From: Ignavibacteriaceae bacterium
GTDB lineage: Bacteria; Bacteroidota; Ignavibacteria; Ignavibacteriales; Ignavibacteriaceae
DNA length: 64,000 nt
Direction: 5' to 3'
Assembly (NCBI GenBank): GCA_020848375.1
Contig: JADLAF010000194.1
Coordinates: forward strand, 1 to 64,000
How positions within the stretch are numbered: the first letter of the stretch is position 1; the number at the start of each line of letters is the position of its first letter. Below the pieces are notes generated by a model that made no database searches, was not told the origin of the DNA, and was given only the letters and a program-made list of their open reading frames with translations. Shown here piece by piece: positions 4,974-14,842 of this stretch. The position numbers were made by a program, and so were the translations under genes.

Positions 4974-4983
4974 GAAATTAAGA

Positions 4984-5009
4984 CCCTCGTGAAGCGAGGG
5001 TTTTTTTTT
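4984..5009 (+). terminator. Rho-independent terminator
   Basis: A 6-bp stem CCCTCG/CGAGGG with a 5-nt loop is followed by nine T residues. It lies 10 bases after the stop of the TPR gene at 4973 and separates it from the envelope module that starts at 5038. Confidence 0.85.
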
Positions 5010-5037: not shown

Positions 5038-8007
5038 ATGTTCAGGTTATCAGGAGTTGTTCTTCTCCTCTTTTTACTAACTGGTTCTGTCTTTCCATCA
5101 GGATCAGCATTTCAGGAGGCAATTCTTTTTTATAATAAGGGGTTGTTCGGTCAGACATCCCGGATACTGAAAGACTATATACAAAGTCTGGCCAAAGATC
5201 ATCCTGACAGGGAAACTTCTCTTTACTTTCTTGCAAAATCGAACTACTACCTCGGAATTCACACTTTAGCTGCTGATTACTTCGAACAGTTTAACAGGGA
5301 GTATCCACTTTCGCCCCTTAAAGAACAAGTATATAACAAACTTGGTCTTCATTATTTTGAAACGGGCCTATTCCCTGAATCCAGAGATAATTATTTTTCA
5401 TTAATTAAAGAGTTCCCCGAAAGTGAATTTACTGGTTCAGCTCAATACTGGATAGGGGAGTCTTTTGTTCATGAGGGCAAATTCAGCGAGGCAATCAGTT
5501 ATCTTGAAAATGCCATAAGCAGCAGAAGCGGTAATAAATATCTGGATTATGCTATTTATTCACTTGCCGGAGTTTATGAAAGGAAAGGGGACTATAAATC
5601 GGCAGCTACCTATTACGATGAATTAATTTCTTTTTACCGAAGCAGTCCACTTCTTGCAGCCGCCCAGATTCGTATTGGTTTTTGCTACTTCAAGCTAAAA
5701 GACTATGATGCTTCTATTTTAGAGTTGTCAAATCCGAATATCGGAACAATGACCGCAGAAAAGCAGGCAGAAGCGCTTTACCTTCTTGCCAATGCAATGT
5801 ATCACACTTCCGACTATGAGGGGGCTTATAAAATTTATGCTGATATACAAAATAAATTCCCCTCAATATCTTTTATCCGTGATCTCCGTTATGCATTTGC
5901 ATGGACAAACTTCAGGTTGAATAAATATTCTGATGCATATAAATTTTTTAATTCGGTTTCAGAAACTGAAGATAGTATGGGCATTGAAGCATTCTTCTGG
6001 AAAGGGGAGGCAAAACGGTATTCCGGTCAGCTTGATGAAGCGTTAAAGATTTACGAGCAGTTTCTCTTAAAGTTTCCTGGATCAGAAAAAGTGCAGGGCG
6101 TAAGATATCAGCTTGGGCTGATTTCATATTCAGATAAAAAGTACGAACAAGCTGTTAAATTTCTCATCGGATCAGTAACTGGTAAAGATAAAATTATAAC
6201 ACTCAAATCATATATTCTTCTTGGTGAAATAGAGCTTTACCGGAAAAAATATCAGCTTGCCGATAATTATTTTAATTCGGTTCTCAGCATGAGTCCGGAT
6301 GATGCCTCGCTATTTTACCGTGCACGGTTGGGTAAAGCTATCTCCTCATTCCATCAGGAAAAATTTAAAGATGTTTCTGAAATTCTGAAAAAAATAGAAG
6401 AGGAGAACCCAAACTTCGAGTTTGAAAAAGTGAGTTTCTTTCTTGCTGAAGCTCTTTTTAATCTGAAACAGTATAAAGAGTCCTTAACCTACTATAATAA
6501 AATCAGTACGGACGACAAACAGTTTGGTGCTTATGCACTCTACGGCAAGGCATATACTTACTACAACCAGTCTGACTATAAAAATGCAACTTTTTATTTT
6601 TCCGATTTCCTGAAACTGTTCAAGAATGATGAAAGAGCAGATGATGCTTCATTGCGTCTTGGGGATAGTTTTTTTGCTGTTAGGGATTATGATGCGGCGG
6701 TACGGATTTATAAGGATATACTGGTCAGGAAAAGTAAAGGAGTACGAACAGATTATGTAAATTATCAGCTCGCCCTGGCATATTATAAGGCAGGAAAAAT
6801 TAAGGAATCTCTGGCGGAACTTAATTCTGTCTCAGCGCTTTATTCAAAAAGTGAGTATGGTGAAAATGCGCTTTATCTGGCCGGGTGGATTCATTTTCAG
6901 CAAGCCAACTATAGTGCAGCAATAGATAAATATCTGCTCATGCTCAATACTATGCCCAGATCACGTTTGATTCCCATGATACTGTACTCGATCGGTGACT
7001 CATACTTTAATCTTGGCAGCTATGATTCCTCCATTGCCTATTATAACAGAATAGTTACATCTTATTCGGGAAGCAATTATTTGTTTGATGCTATTAGCGG
7101 TATTCAGTATTGTTATATAGCAAAAGGCGATCTGGAAGGTGCGACTTTAATTATTGACCGCTATGCCCGCCAGTATCGGTCAAGTGCATTCGCGGATGAG
7201 CTGTTTCTAAAAAAGGGAGAAATTTATTACTCAAACGGGGACTATGAAAAAGCGATTGTTTACTATAATGAATTTATAGATTTGTTCCCTGAATCAGAAC
7301 TTACCGCGGATGCTTTTTTCTGGATTGCTAAAAGCTATCGCACAACCGGTAAAGTCCTGGAGGCCAAGCAGACCTTCCGTGCACTTGCTGAAAGATTCCC
7401 GGCTGCTGAAATAACTGTTTCCGCCGTTATTGAACTTGCTTCACTCTATCAGGCGGACAACAATCATGGAGAAGCACTTAAGGTAATTAACTCTGTATTG
7501 GTGAATTTCAGTAAAAGCACAAGGTATCCGGAACTGCTTTACACCAAGGGCAAAATACTTCTTGTAATGAATGATGTAGGCGGTGCTTATGATTTATTTG
7601 ATCAGACTTCAGTTTATTACGTTGATAACTTGTTTGGCGATAAGTCAAAAATTGAATTAGGCAAACTTGAACTGAACAATAAACGTTACAAGAAGGCCGC
7701 TGAAGTTCTTCTGAAAGTTGCCACTAAGAGAAGTGATGATTTGGCTGCTGAAGCACAGTATATTCTCGGACTTGTTTACACGGCAGAAGGAAAAAACAGC
7801 GAGGCAATCACCTCATTTGTAAGGGTGACCAATATCTTTTCATTGTACGATGAATGGGTTACCAAAAGTTTTTTGCGGCTTGGAGAACTCTATGCGAAGT
7901 CCGGTGATAAAAACAAAGCCAAAGAAATGTATAAAAGTGTTTTAGCAAAACACCCTGATGATGAATATGGCAAGGAAGCACAATTAAAGCTGAGGAGATT
8001 GAAATGA
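5038..8007 (+). CDS. giant exported TPR protein, first gene of the TonB/ExbBD module
   Basis: This 989-residue protein has an N-terminal signal peptide (about 1-24). The remainder is a continuous array of more than 20 TPR-like helical hairpins with repeated patterns such as YDxAxxxY, FPxSE, A.Y.LG and GDYEKAIVYYNEFI. The architecture resembles BamD/YbgF-type periplasmic scaffolds but is far longer. The final segment (KAKEMYKSVL, KHPDDEYGKEA) is a canonical YbgF-like TPR. Its stop overlaps the next start as ATGA (8004-8007), so translation is coupled to the barrel gene. It probably organises envelope partners; no catalytic motif is seen. Confidence 0.85.
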   Translation: MFRLSGVVLLLFLLTGSVFPSGSAFQEAILFYNKGLFGQTSRILKDYIQSLAKDHPDRETSLYFLAKSNYYLGIHTLAADYFEQFNREYPLSPLKEQVYNKLGLHYFETGLFPESRDNYFSLIKEFPESEFTGSAQYWIGESFVHEGKFSEAISYLENAISSRSGNKYLDYAIYSLAGVYERKGDYKSAATYYDELISFYRSSPLLAAAQIRIGFCYFKLKDYDASILELSNPNIGTMTAEKQAEALYLLANAMYHTSDYEGAYKIYADIQNKFPSISFIRDLRYAFAWTNFRLNKYSDAYKFFNSVSETEDSMGIEAFFWKGEAKRYSGQLDEALKIYEQFLLKFPGSEKVQGVRYQLGLISYSDKKYEQAVKFLIGSVTGKDKIITLKSYILLGEIELYRKKYQLADNYFNSVLSMSPDDASLFYRARLGKAISSFHQEKFKDVSEILKKIEEENPNFEFEKVSFFLAEALFNLKQYKESLTYYNKISTDDKQFGAYALYGKAYTYYNQSDYKNATFYFSDFLKLFKNDERADDASLRLGDSFFAVRDYDAAVRIYKDILVRKSKGVRTDYVNYQLALAYYKAGKIKESLAELNSVSALYSKSEYGENALYLAGWIHFQQANYSAAIDKYLLMLNTMPRSRLIPMILYSIGDSYFNLGSYDSSIAYYNRIVTSYSGSNYLFDAISGIQYCYIAKGDLEGATLIIDRYARQYRSSAFADELFLKKGEIYYSNGDYEKAIVYYNEFIDLFPESELTADAFFWIAKSYRTTGKVLEAKQTFRALAERFPAAEITVSAVIELASLYQADNNHGEALKVINSVLVNFSKSTRYPELLYTKGKILLVMNDVGGAYDLFDQTSVYYVDNLFGDKSKIELGKLELNNKRYKKAAEVLLKVATKRSDDLAAEAQYILGLVYTAEGKNSEAITSFVRVTNIFSLYDEWVTKSFLRLGELYAKSGDKNKAKEMYKSVLAKHPDDEYGKEAQLKLRRLK

Positions 8008-9593
8008 AACTGAATATAAAAATGCTTGTGTTCCTTCTTGTTTTATCTACAGTGACATTTGCGCAGGACGACACTAAGTCTAATGTTGAACTGCCTGATT
8101 TTGTTATTACCGGTAAGGACCAGATTAATTTCCCGCCGGCAAAAAAAATTAAACCGGATGTGATATCGGCACTTTCAGAAGAATTTATAAATCCTCCTTA
8201 TAAAGCTGAAGAGTTTTCTTCAGGTGAAATAAGCATACCAGAAACAATTGTTTCGTTTAAGAAAGACTCTTCTCTGGTTTTTAATGGGTTGTTCTCAGTT
8301 TATCTGGGTAACCTCTCCCTCCCCGAGCTTAAAGGTAGTTATAATCTGGGTTTTGGTTCATTGCGGCTTACTCCGTCTCTTGAGGTGAAAAAAATCCGCG
8401 ATTTTGAACCGAACAGCGGAGAAAGTATATATAACTTTAATGTTAGTTCAGTTTTTACGCAGGAAAGAGGCGAGGGGTTTTTTAGTGACATAATTGCAGA
8501 CGCGGATGTTTCTTTCTATTCAAGTAACAGGAAACTTTACAAAGACACATTATCGTTCAGGAAAAGGGACTTAAATCTGTTTTCAATGAATGCCGGTATT
8601 AAAAAATATTTTAGCAGTAATTCCACAGTGCATCTTACCGGTGATATTAAATCTGCATCAGTAAATGAGTTTGTCTCTGGGTTGAACAGGGCTTCTTTTG
8701 ACGCGGGTGGTTTCGTTAAATTTTCAAATTTTATACTCTCCGCTGATGCTGAAATCTCCACTATGTCATTAGACAATTATGACAAGGGCTATTATTCTTT
8801 CACCCCAGGTGTTTCATATTTTCAGCCCGGCTCACTTTACATAAGAGTAGCTGGCGGACCCGTAAAGGCAGGCGAAAATAGCGGTATTGGGATTGATGCC
8901 TCAGCCGGATTGAATCTTTCTTCCGCACTAAGTGTCAGTTTCAGCTATGAAAATGGCTGGAAGAGCTCAAATTTGTTTAGTTCACTTGTTTCTGTCCCAT
9001 ATTTCCTGCCTGATTCATTAAGTCAATTGTTCGAAAACCGGAATCATCACCTCAGGTTTGAAACAAAATACAGTTTTAAACACTATTTTGAGGGGTTAGT
9101 TTTCATTAAAACCGGTAAAACAGAGAACATGAACTATTTCTTGAGAGATACTTCTAACGGGGTTTTCAGAGCTTCATCGGCAGATGCCTCATTTGTAGGT
9201 ATGGGGGTTGATCTTAAGTTCCATGAGGGTCCCATGGGTTTTTTATATGGTCATGCTGAACTTAATTCTGTTAAGGATAATAATGACAAAACACTTCCTT
9301 ATCTGTCTTCTCTTCGGGGCAATTTGATCTATGGTAAAAAGCTGAGCAAGTCAATTAGTCTGCTGGCTGGTGCTGAGTATCTTAGTTCTCCTTATGTTGA
9401 CCGGCAGAATCTGAAAGAAAGCAGTTCTTACTTAGACATTAATTTAGCGTTAGAATATAAACTCGGCCTTATTTCAGAGGGAAGTGTGGTTTCATTTAAA
9501 GCGAATAATCTGTTAAATACCGAAAACAACTACTGGGAGGGATACCCTGGCAGACCGGCCGACTTTCGTATTGGTTTGGAAATAAAGTTTTAA
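8004..9593 (+). CDS. outer-membrane beta-barrel protein resembling a TonB-dependent receptor without plug
   Basis: The 529-residue protein has a signal peptide (1-20, ending TFAQ) and then, at about residues 28-42, VELPDFVITGKDQIN. This resembles the LPEVVVTG-type element found just before the plug of TonB-dependent receptors. A plug-sized domain is missing: only about 60 residues precede the beta-rich region of alternating hydrophobic strands. The last strands (NNLLNTENNYWEGYPGRP and a C-terminal RIGLEIKF with final Phe) look like the end of a TonB-receptor barrel. Location between the TPR scaffold and ExbBD/TonB suggests energised outer-membrane function. The substrate is unknown. Confidence 0.75.
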   Translation: MKLNIKMLVFLLVLSTVTFAQDDTKSNVELPDFVITGKDQINFPPAKKIKPDVISALSEEFINPPYKAEEFSSGEISIPETIVSFKKDSSLVFNGLFSVYLGNLSLPELKGSYNLGFGSLRLTPSLEVKKIRDFEPNSGESIYNFNVSSVFTQERGEGFFSDIIADADVSFYSSNRKLYKDTLSFRKRDLNLFSMNAGIKKYFSSNSTVHLTGDIKSASVNEFVSGLNRASFDAGGFVKFSNFILSADAEISTMSLDNYDKGYYSFTPGVSYFQPGSLYIRVAGGPVKAGENSGIGIDASAGLNLSSALSVSFSYENGWKSSNLFSSLVSVPYFLPDSLSQLFENRNHHLRFETKYSFKHYFEGLVFIKTGKTENMNYFLRDTSNGVFRASSADASFVGMGVDLKFHEGPMGFLYGHAELNSVKDNNDKTLPYLSSLRGNLIYGKKLSKSISLLAGAEYLSSPYVDRQNLKESSSYLDINLALEYKLGLISEGSVVSFKANNLLNTENNYWEGYPGRPADFRIGLEIKF

Positions 9594-9603
9594 CATCAGT
9601 ACG

Positions 9604-11460
9604 ATGACTAAATCTGAATTAATCAGGAATATAGCTCTAAAAACAGGTATCCCTGTCTATCAGGCAGTGGATTTTATGGAGATATTTCTTGAATATATAC
9701 GAGAACATGTTGAAGGGGGTAAATCTTTTATCATAGGTGCAATTGGTGAATTCAGACCTGTGCATGTTAATATATCCGGGAAGTTAAATATAAGCAACTA
9801 TGTTGAAGCTATACTTTTTGAGGGGAAAGAACCTTTTACCTCATCCCGGCACTTGTTTGATCTCCCCTCAGCCGAAGCAGCGGTTGATATAAAAGCCGAC
9901 AATCTGCTTAATCTGAGTTTTGATAAGCCAATTATGCCGGCTGACTCTTCTGGCGATACCGAGGCATTTCTTCTCCTCAATGGCAGTCAAAGCAGAGAAT
10001 TGCTTGTTAAGAAAGCTGCAGAATTATTCGGTACAGGAAGTATTTTTGATATCAACACCATCGAATCCTACCTGTCGGTAGCTGACCTGAAAGAGATTAT
10101 AAATAAGGGTGACTCAGAAAGTGATATCCGGAATGCAATTGAAAAGACAGATTCTGAGTCCTGGGAAACTTCTGAAGCATTGGATTGGGAGTTTGGCGGT
10201 GAATGGAAAAAGGAAGTTGAAAGTGAAGATATTTTGCTGGATGCAAATCTTTCCGAATGGAATTTTGGCGGGGAAGAATCACAAACAGTTGAAGAAAGTG
10301 AAATTAGTTTTGATGATTTAACCCGTACTAACCTGGATGTCCTTCAACACGAAAAGGACTACGTCCCGGTGTCTTCCCGCACCAGAGAGCTTCAGATAGA
10401 TCTATCTGAATTAGAGGATGAAGAATCATCCAACCATAAAGAAATTTTTCTTCCACCTGATCCAACCTCCTTTACTCCTCAGAATGATCTGGATTCACTC
10501 TTCAAAAAATCAATTGCTGAGAGTTTTCTTTTTGCAATACCGGATCCCATTGAGAAAAAAGAAGAAGAAAGAAGAGAGGAGAGGAGAAAAGCCAGAGAAG
10601 CTGAGGAAAAGGCATATCTTGAAAATGAGTATAGTTTAAGAAAGCGACTGGAAGCTGAAGGAGAGGGGAATGATGAGACCGGTCAACTTGCCGATGTAAT
10701 CAATTTAAAGCCGAAGCATCATAAAGAAGATGATTATTCAGGGTTTGATCCAAAATCGCTCATAAAAACTCAGCTTCCTAAACTTGCCAAACAGAAGAAA
10801 CCGATCATCTGGACACTGCTCTCACTTCTGTTTGTCGCGGGGGTAGGTTCCACCTTATATATTCATCGGTTTGGAGTTCCCGATTTTGTGGCAAAATATC
10901 TGCCTGAAAAAAAAGGATTTGAACTGCCTCCCATAGTTGCTACTGTTGTTGAAAGAGATTACAATATCCCGGTTACATATCCTTACCGGAAAGCTGCAAA
11001 TCCTTCTGATATTCCAATGCTTGGGATTGACAGCAGTGATTTTGCGCCTATGCCCCAGCCCTCAGTCACGAGCATCAAAAATGATTCTACTGTAATTATT
11101 AAGAAAGACTCGAACCAGGTTGTAACGCCGGTTACCAAACCTGTTGTTACCGATCAAAAACCTCCTGAATCAAGGGAACAGAAGCAACCAGTAATCAGTC
11201 AAAACCCTGTGCAGCCGTCTTCAGAATCTGTATTGGTAAAAGGGAATATATTCCGTGAAGGAGATATTTACACGGTTCAGGTCTCAAGCTGGCGAGAAAA
11301 GACTGTTGCAGAGAAGGAATCAGCCCGTTTACAGCGTCTTGGGTATCCGGCCTATGTTCAGTCAGCGGTAATACCAGGCAGGGGCCGATGGTACAGAGTC
11401 AGGGTCGGAGAGTTTAAGACACTTCAGGAAGCTGAAGAATATTCTAATAAATTAAAGTAA
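9604..11460 (+). CDS. HU-like domain / transmembrane / SPOR domain fusion protein
   Basis: Residues 1-60 match the start of HU/IHF proteins (KSELIRNIALKTGIP, then IGEFRPVHVN), but the long basic beta-arm for DNA wrapping is not obvious. A long acidic low-complexity region (about 110-315) and a charged helix (316-352) precede one membrane segment at 399-421. Lys-rich residues before it place the N-terminus in the cytoplasm. A Pro/Ser/Thr-rich linker leads to a C-terminal SPOR domain (554-618, YTVQVSSW and WYRVRVGEF), which in known families binds denuded peptidoglycan. HU-like plus SPOR fusions occur in Bacteroidota. A bridge between nucleoid and septal wall is an inference. Confidence 0.8.
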   Translation: MTKSELIRNIALKTGIPVYQAVDFMEIFLEYIREHVEGGKSFIIGAIGEFRPVHVNISGKLNISNYVEAILFEGKEPFTSSRHLFDLPSAEAAVDIKADNLLNLSFDKPIMPADSSGDTEAFLLLNGSQSRELLVKKAAELFGTGSIFDINTIESYLSVADLKEIINKGDSESDIRNAIEKTDSESWETSEALDWEFGGEWKKEVESEDILLDANLSEWNFGGEESQTVEESEISFDDLTRTNLDVLQHEKDYVPVSSRTRELQIDLSELEDEESSNHKEIFLPPDPTSFTPQNDLDSLFKKSIAESFLFAIPDPIEKKEEERREERRKAREAEEKAYLENEYSLRKRLEAEGEGNDETGQLADVINLKPKHHKEDDYSGFDPKSLIKTQLPKLAKQKKPIIWTLLSLLFVAGVGSTLYIHRFGVPDFVAKYLPEKKGFELPPIVATVVERDYNIPVTYPYRKAANPSDIPMLGIDSSDFAPMPQPSVTSIKNDSTVIIKKDSNQVVTPVTKPVVTDQKPPESREQKQPVISQNPVQPSSESVLVKGNIFREGDIYTVQVSSWREKTVAEKESARLQRLGYPAYVQSAVIPGRGRWYRVRVGEFKTLQEAEEYSNKLK

Positions 11461-11473
11461 AAAAGGAAAAAGA

Positions 11474-12136
11474 ATGAGTTTACTCGAGATGTTCTTTCAG
11501 GGCGGGTTCATTATGTGGCCTATTCTTATCGCATCTGTAGTAGGTGTGGCCATTTCTATTGACCGTTATCTTGTAATCCGCAAAGCACGACTGAATGCTC
11601 CTAAATTTTTGGCTGCAATCCGCTCTATGGTAAAAAAGAAAGATATTGACGGTGCAATACAGTTCTGTATGGCAGAAAAAACACCTGCTTCAAATATGAT
11701 CAGAAAGGGACTTCGTAAAGTACGCTTTGGCCACAGCCGGGTTAAGGAAGCTATTGAGGCAGCCGGAAAACAGGAAGTTACAAAACTTGAAAAAGGTCTT
11801 AGCGTACTTGCCACAATATCAGGCATCGCCCCGCTCATGGGTTTCCTGGGTACCGTGACAGGTATGATTGGTGCATTTATGAAGATTCAGGATTTACAGG
11901 GGTCTGCAAGTCCGAGTGATCTTGCTTCGGGTATTTGGGAGGCACTCTTAACTACAGCGTTTGGCCTGGGCGTAGGTATTATCGCGCTGATTTTTTATAA
12001 CTACTTCCTTGCAAAAATCACCAAATTAGTAAATGATATGGAAGTAATTTCAACTGATGTTCTCGACAGTCTGGAAGAAGCACTCACGGGTAAAGAACTT
12101 CCTCCTGATCAGGACGAGCTTGAAATGGAATTATAA
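11474..12136 (+). CDS. exbB: MotA/TolQ/ExbB family proton channel subunit
   Basis: The 220-residue protein has three membrane segments (about 12-31, 112-135, 158-180) in the TolQ/ExbB order. The conserved ISGIAPLMGFLGTVTGMIGAF and LTTAFGLGVGI stretches line the proton path. A GGFIMWPIL start is typical of the family. It is followed after 2 nt by ExbD and then TonB, so it should form the motor that uses proton motive force to power the TonB-like protein. Assignment to ExbB rather than TolQ rests on the adjacent TonB-type C-terminal domain. Confidence 0.9.
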   Translation: MSLLEMFFQGGFIMWPILIASVVGVAISIDRYLVIRKARLNAPKFLAAIRSMVKKKDIDGAIQFCMAEKTPASNMIRKGLRKVRFGHSRVKEAIEAAGKQEVTKLEKGLSVLATISGIAPLMGFLGTVTGMIGAFMKIQDLQGSASPSDLASGIWEALLTTAFGLGVGIIALIFYNYFLAKITKLVNDMEVISTDVLDSLEEALTGKELPPDQDELEMEL

Positions 12137-12138
12137 TT

Positions 12139-12546
12139 ATGAAGTTCAGCACCGAAAATAAACCGCTGTCATCATTTAATTTTTCGTCATTGACGGATAT
12201 TGTGATGCTTCTGCTGATCTTTTTCCTGCTTTCCTCTCAGTTTGTTATGCAAACAGGAGTAAAAGTTAAGCTGCCTGGTTCAAAAAGCAATGAGCCGCTT
12301 ACTACATCTAATCTTTCAGTTACTATTACTAATGAGGGAACCGTATATATCGGGACTGAGGTAACCGCACTGAGTGAACTACCGATGAAATTCTCCATCA
12401 TGAAACAGGCAGACAAGGATAATAACCTTATTATAAGAGCTGACAAAACAGTTCCGATTGAAATGGTAATCAAAGTTATTGATGCCGCACGTTCAGCGGG
12501 AATAGATAAATTCATAATCGAAACTGAAAAAGACCGGCTGAATTGA
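12139..12546 (+). CDS. exbD: ExbD/TolR family motor subunit
   Basis: The 135-residue protein has one N-terminal membrane helix (about 18-38) containing Asp20 in SLTDIVMLLLIFF, the residue that corresponds to the essential protonatable Asp of ExbD/TolR. The periplasmic domain shows the usual LPGSKS, VTITNEG and NNLIIRADKTVP elements. It lies between exbB and tonB with gaps of 2-3 nt, indicating one transcript and probable assembly into an ExbB-ExbD complex. Confidence 0.92.
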   Translation: MKFSTENKPLSSFNFSSLTDIVMLLLIFFLLSSQFVMQTGVKVKLPGSKSNEPLTTSNLSVTITNEGTVYIGTEVTALSELPMKFSIMKQADKDNNLIIRADKTVPIEMVIKVIDAARSAGIDKFIIETEKDRLN

Positions 12547-12549
12547 TTA

Positions 12550-13200
12550 ATGGCAACCCGTGCTGAAGAGCGCCAGCGCTCAGTCACTATTTCACTTTTT
12601 TTCCATTTTCTGCTGTTTCTCTTTCTTTTTTTTTACAGAATAGAACCGCAGACTGAAATTCAGGAGTTCATCGAAATCGGATTCGGAGGTGATGGTGCTT
12701 CCATGCTTAGCGGTGTTCCAGACAAGTTGAACGATAATCCTGAAGATGTTAAGCAAAATACTGAGTTAGAAAAAAACGATGATGTAAATCTGCCTAAAGC
12801 CGGTGAGAGCCCTGAAGACCCTTCGGTTAAAAAGGAAACTGAAAAGAAACCGGAAGAAAATAAAAACACTAATAACAGTCAGAATACGAACACTCAGACC
12901 TCCGGCAGCGGATCAACAGGATATGATATAGACTGGGGTGGAATGGGTCAGAGAAAGATATATAGTTTTATTCTGCCTGCCTATCCTGAGGGAGTTAACA
13001 AAAATATTGATATAAGAATACGCTTTACCATTTTACCTGATGGAACTGTCGGGAGTGTATTGCTTTTAGTAAAAGCTGATACCCGGCTTGAAAACGCCGC
13101 AATTACCTCACTGCGGCAATGGAGATTTGAACCTCTGCCTGCTAAACAAAATCAGGTGGTTCAGAATGCGGTTATTACTTTCCCGTATCGGGTACAGTAG
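12550..13200 (+). CDS. tonB: TonB-family energy transducer
   Basis: The 216-residue protein has an N-terminal membrane anchor (about 14-29) and a low-complexity Glu/Lys/Asn-rich linker (about 60-125). A C-terminal TonB domain (about 135-216) contains the family pattern IRIRFTILPDGTVGSV and LRQWRFEPLP. It would transmit ExbBD-generated force to an outer-membrane partner, presumably the barrel encoded at 8004. The linker is Pro-poor compared with classical TonB, so a TolA-like role is also possible. Its 3' end overlaps the convergent gene at 13175 by 26 bases. Confidence 0.85.
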   Translation: MATRAEERQRSVTISLFFHFLLFLFLFFYRIEPQTEIQEFIEIGFGGDGASMLSGVPDKLNDNPEDVKQNTELEKNDDVNLPKAGESPEDPSVKKETEKKPEENKNTNNSQNTNTQTSGSGSTGYDIDWGGMGQRKIYSFILPAYPEGVNKNIDIRIRFTILPDGTVGSVLLLVKADTRLENAAITSLRQWRFEPLPAKQNQVVQNAVITFPYRVQ

Positions 13201-13480
13201 CTTTTTTGAAGTACTCAGGATAATACATCCGGTAAAAAAAGTATTCTGCGATGCACAGAAGAGTTAATGTAATTGCATCCCTGTCATAATATAACCCGAA
13301 TCCTTCCGGATTAATCAGATACTTAGTCGGAATTCCGGCAATTGACCATCCCACAGTAAACAATATCGCAATAAGACCAGCATTAAGGAAGGCAGTTGCA
13401 AGATTTTCTTCCTGCCATTTCTTTGTGAAAATAATAAGGATAAAAAGCAGATGCAGGAAAAATATAAATGCTGTGATCAT
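13175..13480 (-). CDS. small integral membrane protein
   Basis: This 101-residue protein has three hydrophobic segments (about 2-18, 28-47, 68-84) with a short charged tail. The family is not recognised. It is the last gene of a three-gene minus-strand operon. Its ATG overlaps the stop of the gene at 13477 by 4 nt, and its 3' end runs 26 bases into the 3' end of tonB on the other strand. The function is unknown. Confidence 0.7.
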   Translation of the reverse strand: MITAFIFFLHLLFILIIFTKKWQEENLATAFLNAGLIAILFTVGWSIAGIPTKYLINPEGFGLYYDRDAITLTLLCIAEYFFYRMYYPEYFKKATVPDTGK

Positions 13481-13986
13481 TGGTTCTGTGAATCCCTTTT
13501 GAACATAAACGCAAAAAACAGACTGCCCGGGAGGCAGAACAGGGCATTGCTGAGTGAATTGCTTACAAAATAAATGAATGTATAAATTCCTGAAAAACCA
13601 TCATTTTTAATATCTTCCATAAGACTGTTGAGCAACGCAGCAGACTGATCAGCTTCAGGCAGCCCAAGCCCCCTTATTATTTTCATTGCCTCCGGCATCA
13701 TCGCGACAAAGTTATTTGTCTTGAAGATCATAGTTACCACAACTTCAATTATGGTCATAAAAAATGCTGTAAAAATTCCTGCTGCTATTCCGGTTTTTAT
13801 AGCTGACAAAAAAGGACGTTCACCCTTCTCAGGATGGAGGCGGAATTCAAACTTTGAGGCAAAGAATCCGGCTGCGGGTACCAGAATAATGAAAAATATC
13901 TGCATGAGTGAAACACTCAGCAGAGCTGCAAGCCCGAACCCGACAACCATAGCCGGTGATAAAATTCTCTGTAAGTTATTGTTCAT
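13477..13986 (-). CDS. DUF4199-like integral membrane protein
   Basis: The 169-residue protein has four hydrophobic segments: about 9-38 (two closely spaced), 64-86 and 138-160. The pattern of hydrophobic segments resembles the DUF4199 membrane proteins of Bacteroidota, a weak assignment made from overall pattern only. It overlaps the upstream propeller gene by 11 nt and the downstream gene by 4 nt, so the three are co-translated. No catalytic motif is visible. Confidence 0.65.
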   Translation of the reverse strand: MNNNLQRILSPAMVVGFGLAALLSVSLMQIFFIILVPAAGFFASKFEFRLHPEKGERPFLSAIKTGIAAGIFTAFFMTIIEVVVTMIFKTNNFVAMMPEAMKIIRGLGLPEADQSAALLNSLMEDIKNDGFSGIYTFIYFVSNSLSNALFCLPGSLFFAFMFKRDSQNQ

Positions 13987-14842
13987 TAAGTAATGTATCA
14001 GTGTTAATAATGTTTAAATTTCTGCCTGTTATATAAATCAGCCGGTTATTGATCAGAAAAGGGGATTGAATTGTATCTCCATCATGACCGGGGATTTGAA
14101 AGACAAGGGGAGACAAAAACGGTTTTGCGACATTCCGAAGAATTACGGTATTCTTTTTTGTTAATATCAGATACTCGCCGGCAAATCCTGCCAAAAACTC
14201 AGTCTTCTCAAGTTCAAAAAAACTGATGTAATTTAAAAACCGGTCAAAAAGAAAAAGACCTGCTGAATCCTGCACGGCAATATGATCTTTGTCAGAAAAA
14301 ATCTTAACAGGATAATTGAGTTTCCTCTCCGGGAGATTTTCAATGAAATAAACATTGCCCCTTTCTTTGAAGTACTGATCAGCCGTCAATATGATATGGC
14401 TCAGCCGGTCTGCGATAAATATTTCGCCAAACGAATTGACTGTAAATGAAACGGGGTCTGCAACCCCAGCCGAGGTGAAAATATGCTCCAATTTTTGCTC
14501 CCCTCTGAAATTAAGAAGCCGGTCAAAAAGTTTCACCGACTTAGCCCCTCTGTCAAGAATGTACAGGTTCATACCCCGCCAGAAAATACATGCAGGGTCA
14601 ATAAGTGCAGAGGTACCAAATCCGCCGCCGCCTGTTCTTTTTAATTCATTGCCATCAGGGTCGGTTACTACTATTTCCAGAGTACTTTTGTCAATAAGGT
14701 AAAAATTACCACTCTGATCCTGGGTTATGCCCAACGGCTGAAAACCGAGGCGGACCTGACTTTCAATACGGATCTGCTGACCTGTCAGAATACAGGTGAG
14801 AAGAATAAAGATTAATGCGTTAAATACTCTAAAAAACTTCAA
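13976..14842 (-). CDS. exported NHL/beta-propeller-like protein
   Basis: The 288-residue protein starts with a signal peptide (FFRVFNALIFILLTCILTGQQ, about 1-21). It then shows repeated blade patterns: GITQDQSGNFYLIDKS, NLYILDRGAKSVKLFD and NSFGEIFIADRLSH. This is the NHL-type six-bladed propeller motif, though fewer than six clear blades are seen. It is the first gene of the minus-strand operon with two membrane proteins. A binding or scaffold role in the periplasm is inferred. The partner is unknown. Confidence 0.75.
   Translation of the reverse strand: MKFFRVFNALIFILLTCILTGQQIRIESQVRLGFQPLGITQDQSGNFYLIDKSTLEIVVTDPDGNELKRTGGGGFGTSALIDPACIFWRGMNLYILDRGAKSVKLFDRLLNFRGEQKLEHIFTSAGVADPVSFTVNSFGEIFIADRLSHIILTADQYFKERGNVYFIENLPERKLNYPVKIFSDKDHIAVQDSAGLFLFDRFLNYISFFELEKTEFLAGFAGEYLILTKKNTVILRNVAKPFLSPLVFQIPGHDGDTIQSPFLINNRLIYITGRNLNIINTDTLLNEQ

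What the first reader, a model, noticed from the sequence alone, without database searches (positions are those of the whole stretch)
9604..11460. HU-like domain on a membrane protein with a periplasmic SPOR domain
The N-terminal HU-like fold is predicted cytoplasmic and the SPOR domain periplasmic, separated by one membrane helix and long acidic linkers. This geometry could connect the nucleoid with septal peptidoglycan. The DNA-wrapping beta-arm seems reduced, so protein binding is an alternative to DNA binding.
Basis: partly seen in the sequence, partly recalled or inferred. Interest (0 to 1): 0.6.

Follow-up and report, generated by a model that had tools for sequence, protein, structure and literature searches.

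The report
Membrane HU-SPOR protein in Ton-like operon
This gene makes an inner-membrane protein with a degenerate DNA-packaging (HU) domain inside the cell and a domain that grips dividing cell wall outside; the layout was already predicted in related bacteria, but here it sits in a conserved Ton/Tol-like operon, and some relatives carry a second HU gene right beside it.

Summary
[quoted passage not shown] HU homology is firm: Pfam HU above cut-off, all 33 PDB hits of the family profile are HU/IHF, profile-profile E 6e-13. The arm lacks RNPxTG and its basic charge, so HU-style DNA wrapping by this protein is unlikely. HU-TM-SPOR order is not new: Pfam's HU-CCDC81 proteins of Bacteroidota have it, and Burroughs et al. 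2017 predicted a chromosome-partition role for them (content from memory). New as far as I could check: (1) the gene lies in a conserved operon TPR - VITG barrel - HU/TM/SPOR - ExbB - ExbD - TonB across Ignavibacteriales and several other Bacteroidota families, including one with the CCDC81 tandem-HU form; (2) in other lineages a free HU gene directly precedes it, and in one family both HUs keep basic arms, suggesting an ancestral membrane-tethered HU heterodimer; (3) conserved WxFG cytoplasmic and RDYxxPVTYPY periplasmic motifs. Best reading: an FtsN/Tol-like septal envelope protein whose HU domain is now mainly protein-binding in this lineage.

The parts
9604..11460 (+). Gene for the HU-like / TM / SPOR protein, 618 aa
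9604..9861 (+). HU-like domain, residues 1-86 (a1 3-14, a2 18-35, b 40-44, 48-56, 66-74, 82-86); no RNPxTG arm
9982..10035 (+). Predicted helix, residues 127-144 (pLDDT about 90), after a disordered stretch
10099..10761 (+). Acidic, mostly disordered cytoplasmic linker, residues 166-386 (28 K/R, 61 D/E)
10186..10197 (+). First WxFG motif (WEFG, residues 195-198), followed by a predicted helix 200-216
10258..10269 (+). Second WxFG motif (WNFG, residues 219-222)
10807..10863 (+). Transmembrane helix, residues 402-420, preceded by the K-rich stretch IKTQLPKLAKQKKPI
10954..10986 (+). Periplasmic juxtamembrane motif RDYNIPVTYPY (residues 451-461), present in recognisable form in 30 of 30 relatives
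11266..11457 (+). SPOR domain, residues 555-618; Q559 and R598 invariant in 29 relatives
4980..5004 (+). Terminator-like hairpin just upstream of the operon
5038..8007 (+). Operon gene 1: exported TPR protein, 989 aa
8004..9593 (+). Operon gene 2: probable outer-membrane barrel, 529 aa, mature N-terminus ELPDFVITGKD (TonB-box-like); no Pfam family
11474..12136 (+). Operon gene 4: ExbB/TolQ
12139..12546 (+). Operon gene 5: ExbD/TolR
12550..13200 (+). Operon gene 6: TonB/TolA-like protein

Best explanation
It is the Ignavibacteriales version of the Bacteroidota HU-TM-SPOR protein: a bitopic inner-membrane protein that is the FtsN-like SPOR protein of this organism and part of a six-gene envelope operon. 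The SPOR domain would hold it on denuded (septal) glycan; the near-invariant RDYxxPVTYPY segment just outside the membrane would contact a periplasmic partner; ExbB/ExbD would energise TonB, which would pull on the VITG motif of the co-encoded barrel, so that the operon couples inner membrane, wall and outer membrane at constriction. On the cytoplasmic side the HU-like domain dimerises through its retained core, and together with the WxFG linker motifs binds a cytoplasmic partner, more likely a protein (divisome protein, or a soluble HU on the nucleoid) than naked DNA. Shown by computation: domains, topology, operon, motif conservation, loss of the DNA-binding arm. Inferred: septal localisation, the Ton/Tol-like role, dimerisation, and every partner.
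For: SPOR above cut-off and matching RlpA/DedD SPOR structures, with the glutamine that contacts denuded glycan in RlpA (Q270, PMC6895207) invariant here as Q559. Single N-in TM helix. It is the only SPOR protein of its genome that is an internal-TM bitopic protein: the other two are an exported TPR-SPOR protein and a lipoprotein. Operon gaps in the window are -4, 10, 13, 2 and 3 bases. In 33 named Ignavibacteriales-type loci the barrel neighbour is present in 33, TPR in 29, TonB in 30, ExbB in 23 and ExbD in 20. HMMs trained there find the same neighbours in other Bacteroidota families, e.g. L211 with tandem HU-CCDC81: TPR 2.8e-87, barrel 5e-21, ExbB 1.5e-53, ExbD 1.4e-18, TonB 1.3e-5. No TolB_N in 9 of 9 Ignavibacteriales genomes while controls ring. 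WxFG in 28 of 30 linkers, 46 copies against 0.19 expected by shuffling; RDYxxPVTYPY-type motif in 30 of 30.
Against: No experiment on any member. SPOR domains also occur in proteins without an essential division role. ExbB/ExbD are missing between HU-SPOR and TonB in at least nine loci, and Flavobacteriia-type relatives (L114-L123) lie beside dprA and a thioesterase, not in this operon, so the operon partners are not obligatory. TolB could be missed by one Pfam model. The VITG segment as a TonB box is a resemblance by eye. The own genome is 88.75% complete.
Confidence: 0.5

Rival explanations
1. Direct nucleoid tether: the HU domain binds DNA (as a homodimer or with a soluble HU) and the SPOR domain binds septal wall, so that the protein ties chromosome to division site, as the first reader proposed and as Burroughs et al. 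2017 predicted for HU-CCDC81 proteins (chromosome partition; from memory).
For: True HU homology. In f42 genomes the fused HU is basic (+15, pI about 10) with a DPRTG arm and follows a complete free HU gene with GRNPKTG 10 bases or so upstream; f37 and two further families (L212, L213) also have the free HU + HU-TM-SPOR pair.
Against: In the window protein and 29 of 29 family members RNPxTG is gone; residues 1-79 here carry net charge -2 (family mean +1.1; own canonical HUs +5 and +16) and the linker is strongly acidic. No free HU gene in the Ignavibacteriales operon.
Confidence: 0.2
2. Half of a tethered HU heterodimer: the HU-like domain pairs with one of the two ordinary soluble HUs, so that DNA binding is borrowed from the partner.
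For: HU/IHF proteins are obligate dimers (general knowledge). Dimer-core positions are kept (G48 27/29, F50 28/29, F/Y72 26/29). Free HU + HU-TM-SPOR gene pairs, and the tandem HU1-HU2 fusion of Bacteroidia, both look like two-subunit forms. The L213 free HU matches HU-CCDC81_bac_1 weakly (20.7 bits, cut-off 26) and the fused HUs of L206, L212 and L213 match HU-CCDC81_bac_2 (31.6, 31.7 and 19.7 bits, cut-off 35).
Against: The partner gene is not in the Ignavibacteriales operon; no complex was modelled (only single chains can be folded here); homodimerisation is equally possible.
Confidence: 0.2
3. The N-domain is a relic with no specific function; the protein is just a SPOR protein with a long tail.
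For: In genus g9 (G009, L202 5882-8899) the operon and SPOR end persist while the N-domain has diverged beyond the profile.
Against: The HU-like domain is recognisable across Ignavibacteriaceae and Melioribacteraceae and elsewhere in Bacteroidota, with nearly invariant F24, L29, G48 and F50 at 20-30% overall identity.
Confidence: 0.1

Closest known systems
HU-CCDC81_bac_1/2 - TM - SPOR proteins of Bacteroidota (Pfam PF18174/PF18175; Burroughs, Kaur, Zhang, Aravind 2017, Cell Cycle 16:1093, known here only by title and memory)
   Same: Cytoplasmic HU domain(s), one TM helix, C-terminal SPOR; in L211 (f13) the same operon neighbours
   Different: One HU domain instead of two; its profile matches canonical HU (97.9%) far better than CCDC81_bac (25%); PF18175 only 13.7 bits; long acidic linker with WxFG motifs
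FtsN / DedD / DamX
   Same: Bitopic N-in inner-membrane SPOR proteins with long linkers
   Different: No HU domain in those; NCBIfam FtsN model scores 21.8 against cut-off 107.65 (SPOR part only); different operon
Canonical HU / IHF
   Same: a-a-b-b-b fold, retained dimer-core Gly48/Phe50/Phe72 positions
   Different: Arm motif RNPxTG lost, charge lost, fused to TM and SPOR
Tol-Pal and Ton systems
   Same: ExbB/TolQ, ExbD/TolR, TonB/TolA-like protein, exported TPR protein in one operon
   Different: No TolB found, TonB-type C-domain, an own VITG barrel, HU-TM-SPOR gene inside

Membership tests
HU superfamily (PF00216) | HU fold and sequence profile above cut-off | tested here: met
   25.4 bits > 22.4
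HU superfamily (PF00216) | DNA-intercalating arm with RNPxTG | tested here: not met
   0 of 29
HU superfamily (PF00216) | Dimer, DNA binding | not testable with these tools
   core residues kept, net charge -2
HU-CCDC81_bac - TM - SPOR (PF18174/PF18175) | Two tandem CCDC81-type HU domains above cut-off | tested here: not met
   PF18175 13.7 bits against 35, PF18174 not found; hhalign 25%
HU-CCDC81_bac - TM - SPOR (PF18174/PF18175) | Order HU - TM - SPOR, N-in | tested here: met
   relatives
HU-CCDC81_bac - TM - SPOR (PF18174/PF18175) | Same genomic position (operon orthology) | tested here: met
   L211 carries PF18174+PF18175 HUs in the same operon; not so in Flavobacteriia-type loci
SPOR domain proteins (PF05036) | SPOR profile and the glycan-contacting glutamine | tested here: met
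   48.3 bits; Q559 invariant, compare Q270 of RlpA in PMC6895207
FtsN (TIGR02223) | NCBIfam equivalog score | tested here: not met
   21.8 against 107.65
Tol-Pal system | TolB present in genome | tested here: not met
   TolB_N in 0 of 9 genomes
Tol-Pal system | Septal accumulation, role in outer-membrane constriction | not testable with these tools
   needs microscopy

The most novel reading that the evidence does not exclude
Bacteroidota have an ancestral trans-envelope division machine, encoded as TPR - VITG barrel - HU - HU/TM/SPOR - ExbB - ExbD - TonB, in which an HU heterodimer with one membrane-anchored half links the chromosome to septal wall and, through TonB, to the outer membrane, replacing Tol-Pal; the window holds a derived form that lost the free HU and DNA wrapping.
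Probability: 0.2. Interest if true: 0.85.

Novelty: new variant of a known kind. Interest (0 to 1): 0.52.

Why it matters
How Bacteroidota that lack FtsN and (in these genomes) TolB coordinate constriction of three envelope layers with the chromosome is open. A conserved operon that puts an HU-derived domain, a septal-wall domain and a Ton-type motor side by side gives a concrete, testable candidate. The free-HU plus tethered-HU gene pairs suggest how the tandem HU-CCDC81 proteins of Bacteroidia arose, a family thought to have been passed on to eukaryotes (Burroughs et al. 2017, from memory).

Tried and rejected
PF18175 in the own genome: no match, so the protein is not an ordinary HU-CCDC81 protein. 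Full-length phmmer against PDB: nothing useful; profiles were needed. The Burroughs 2017 paper is not held; only its title was confirmed, through reference lists. Literature searches for an HU-SPOR-Ton operon found nothing, which is weak evidence because the library lacks most subscription papers. Chance similarity of the N-domain to HU was rejected (reciprocal profile hits on canonical HUs in most class genomes). Reversed topology was rejected (and the SPOR side). No tree of HU domains was made: about 55 alignable positions would not resolve it.

Full report
What is there. Window 9604-11460 (+) is one open frame of 618 aa. Pfam places SPOR at 555-618 (1.3e-12) and canonical HU, PF00216, at 1-55 (25.4 bits, cut-off 22.4); the CCDC81-type HU model PF18175 scores only 13.7. 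The closest same-genus relative is 77% identical over the full length, and about two dozen more relatives in the same family are co-linear at 20-33%.

Is the HU fold real? Yes. AlphaFold with 29 relatives gives helices 3-14 and 18-35 and strands 40-44, 48-56, 66-74 (blocks up to residue 50 at pLDDT 85-92; weaker after), then low confidence at 91-123. Foldseek E-values are weak, but the first 28 hits are all HU or IHF. By sequence the family profile matches 33 PDB chains, every one HU or IHF. It also picks up the ordinary ~100 aa HU proteins of most genomes in the class, including one of the two of this genome. HHalign with six HUs: 97.9%, E 6e-13, 83 columns.

Is it still a DNA-binding HU? Probably not in the HU manner. 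The arm motif RNPxTG is absent in all 29 sequences; the hairpin from Gly48 to Phe72 is 24 residues here and 19-31 in relatives against 31 in HupA. Residues 1-79 have net charge -2, pI 5.6; the family mean is +1.1, while the two own HUs are +5 and +16. The dimer-core positions Gly48, Phe50 and Phe/Tyr72 are kept in at least 26 of 29, so dimerisation may be retained.

Topology and linkers. One hydrophobic segment, 402-420, more K/R before than after it in most relatives: HU inside, SPOR outside. Two short motifs stand out: WxFG in 28 of 30 cytoplasmic linkers (46 copies, 0.19 expected in shuffled linkers) and an RDYxxPVTYPY-like segment right outside the membrane in 30 of 30. Conserved motifs in disordered linkers argue for partner proteins rather than plain spacers (inference).

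SPOR. The glutamine that contacts denuded glycan in RlpA (Q270; PMC6895207) corresponds to Q559 by its place in the YxVQV strand, and Q559 is invariant in the family. The full model finds RlpA and DedD SPOR structures. In the own genome the only other SPOR proteins are an exported TPR-SPOR protein and a lipoprotein, so this is the FtsN-like bitopic one; the genome is 88.75% complete.

Surroundings. The gene lies in a run of six genes with gaps of -4, 10, 13, 2 and 3 bases after a terminator-like hairpin at 4980-5004: TPR 989 aa, probable barrel 529 aa, HU/TM/SPOR, ExbB, ExbD, TonB. The barrel has no Pfam family; its mature end begins with a near-invariant LPxFVITG, which looks like a TonB box (resemblance by eye). 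In 33 named loci of the order the barrel is present in 33, TonB in 30, TPR in 29, ExbB in 23, ExbD in 20, other absences being partly contig ends and partly real loss of ExbB/ExbD. No TolB_N domain was found in nine genomes of the order.

Wider family. Eight loci from other Bacteroidota families were taken because of HU-CCDC81 hits in long frames, without regard to neighbours. Seven show the HU/TM/SPOR frame with operon neighbours recognised by HMMs trained on Ignavibacteriales (L206-L209, L211, L212, L213), and L210 shows the neighbours, although my frame picker did not recover its HU-SPOR frame. L211 is decisive: tandem PF18174 + PF18175 HUs, TM, SPOR, in the same operon. Flavobacteriia-type relatives have moved beside dprA. 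So the window protein is a positional orthologue of the HU-CCDC81-TM-SPOR proteins although its HU domain does not pass their profile.

Two-HU forms. In f42 (L154, L165), f37 (L156, L161, L162) and in L212 and L213 a free HU gene of about 90 codons directly precedes HU/TM/SPOR. In f42 both HUs are complete and basic: free, +10 with GRNPKTG; fused, +15 with DPRTG or DPKTG. The simplest story (inference, no tree made) is an ancestral HU pair with one half anchored in the membrane, fused into tandem HU1-HU2 in Bacteroidia and reduced to one degenerate HU in Ignavibacteriales.

Mechanism. I think the protein sits at the septum through SPOR, belongs to a Ton/Tol-like motor encoded with it, and uses the HU-like domain and WxFG motifs to hold a cytoplasmic partner; direct DNA tethering is likelier for the f42-type ancestors than for this protein. 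Domains, topology, operon and motif conservation are computed; localisation, motor role and partners are inferred.

Known or new. HU-TM-SPOR architecture is in Pfam's CCDC81 families, and a chromosome-partition role was proposed in Burroughs et al. 2017 (title confirmed; content from memory; paper not held). I found no description of the operon or of the free/tethered HU gene pairs, but the library is incomplete and that paper may contain it.

Noticed in passing
window 8004-9593 (+); L154 3192-4856; L165 2610-4346: Probable outer-membrane barrel family without a Pfam model, with near-invariant LPxFVITG at the mature N-terminus, conserved across Bacteroidota beside HU-SPOR genes.
   Followed up: partly
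L202 5882-8899: Genus g9 (G009): operon kept, but the HU/TM/SPOR protein is 1006 aa and its N-terminus has diverged beyond the HU profile.
   Followed up: partly
L206-L209: f23 relatives have their own repeated linker motif WG[IV][DE]x[YH]K[DE] in very acidic linkers.
   Followed up: no
L154 4873-5274; L165 2258-2647: f42 operons have a small exported-looking protein with a CNYCH motif (CxxCH, cytochrome c-like) between TPR and barrel.
   Followed up: no
L156, L161, L162: f37 free HU + HU/TM/SPOR pairs lie beside a GAF-domain-like gene and an apolipoprotein N-acyltransferase-like gene, in some cases also a TPR-TM-SPOR gene, instead of the barrel/Ton genes.
   Followed up: no
L034, L035, L036, L037, L040, L043, L046, L053, L074: ExbB and ExbD not detected between HU-SPOR and TonB; TonB follows directly.
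   Followed up: no
window 13175-13480 and 13477-13986 (-), 13976-14842 (-): Two small membrane proteins and an NHL-like protein on the opposite strand downstream are conserved in nearly all Ignavibacteriales loci (29-30 of 33).
   Followed up: no
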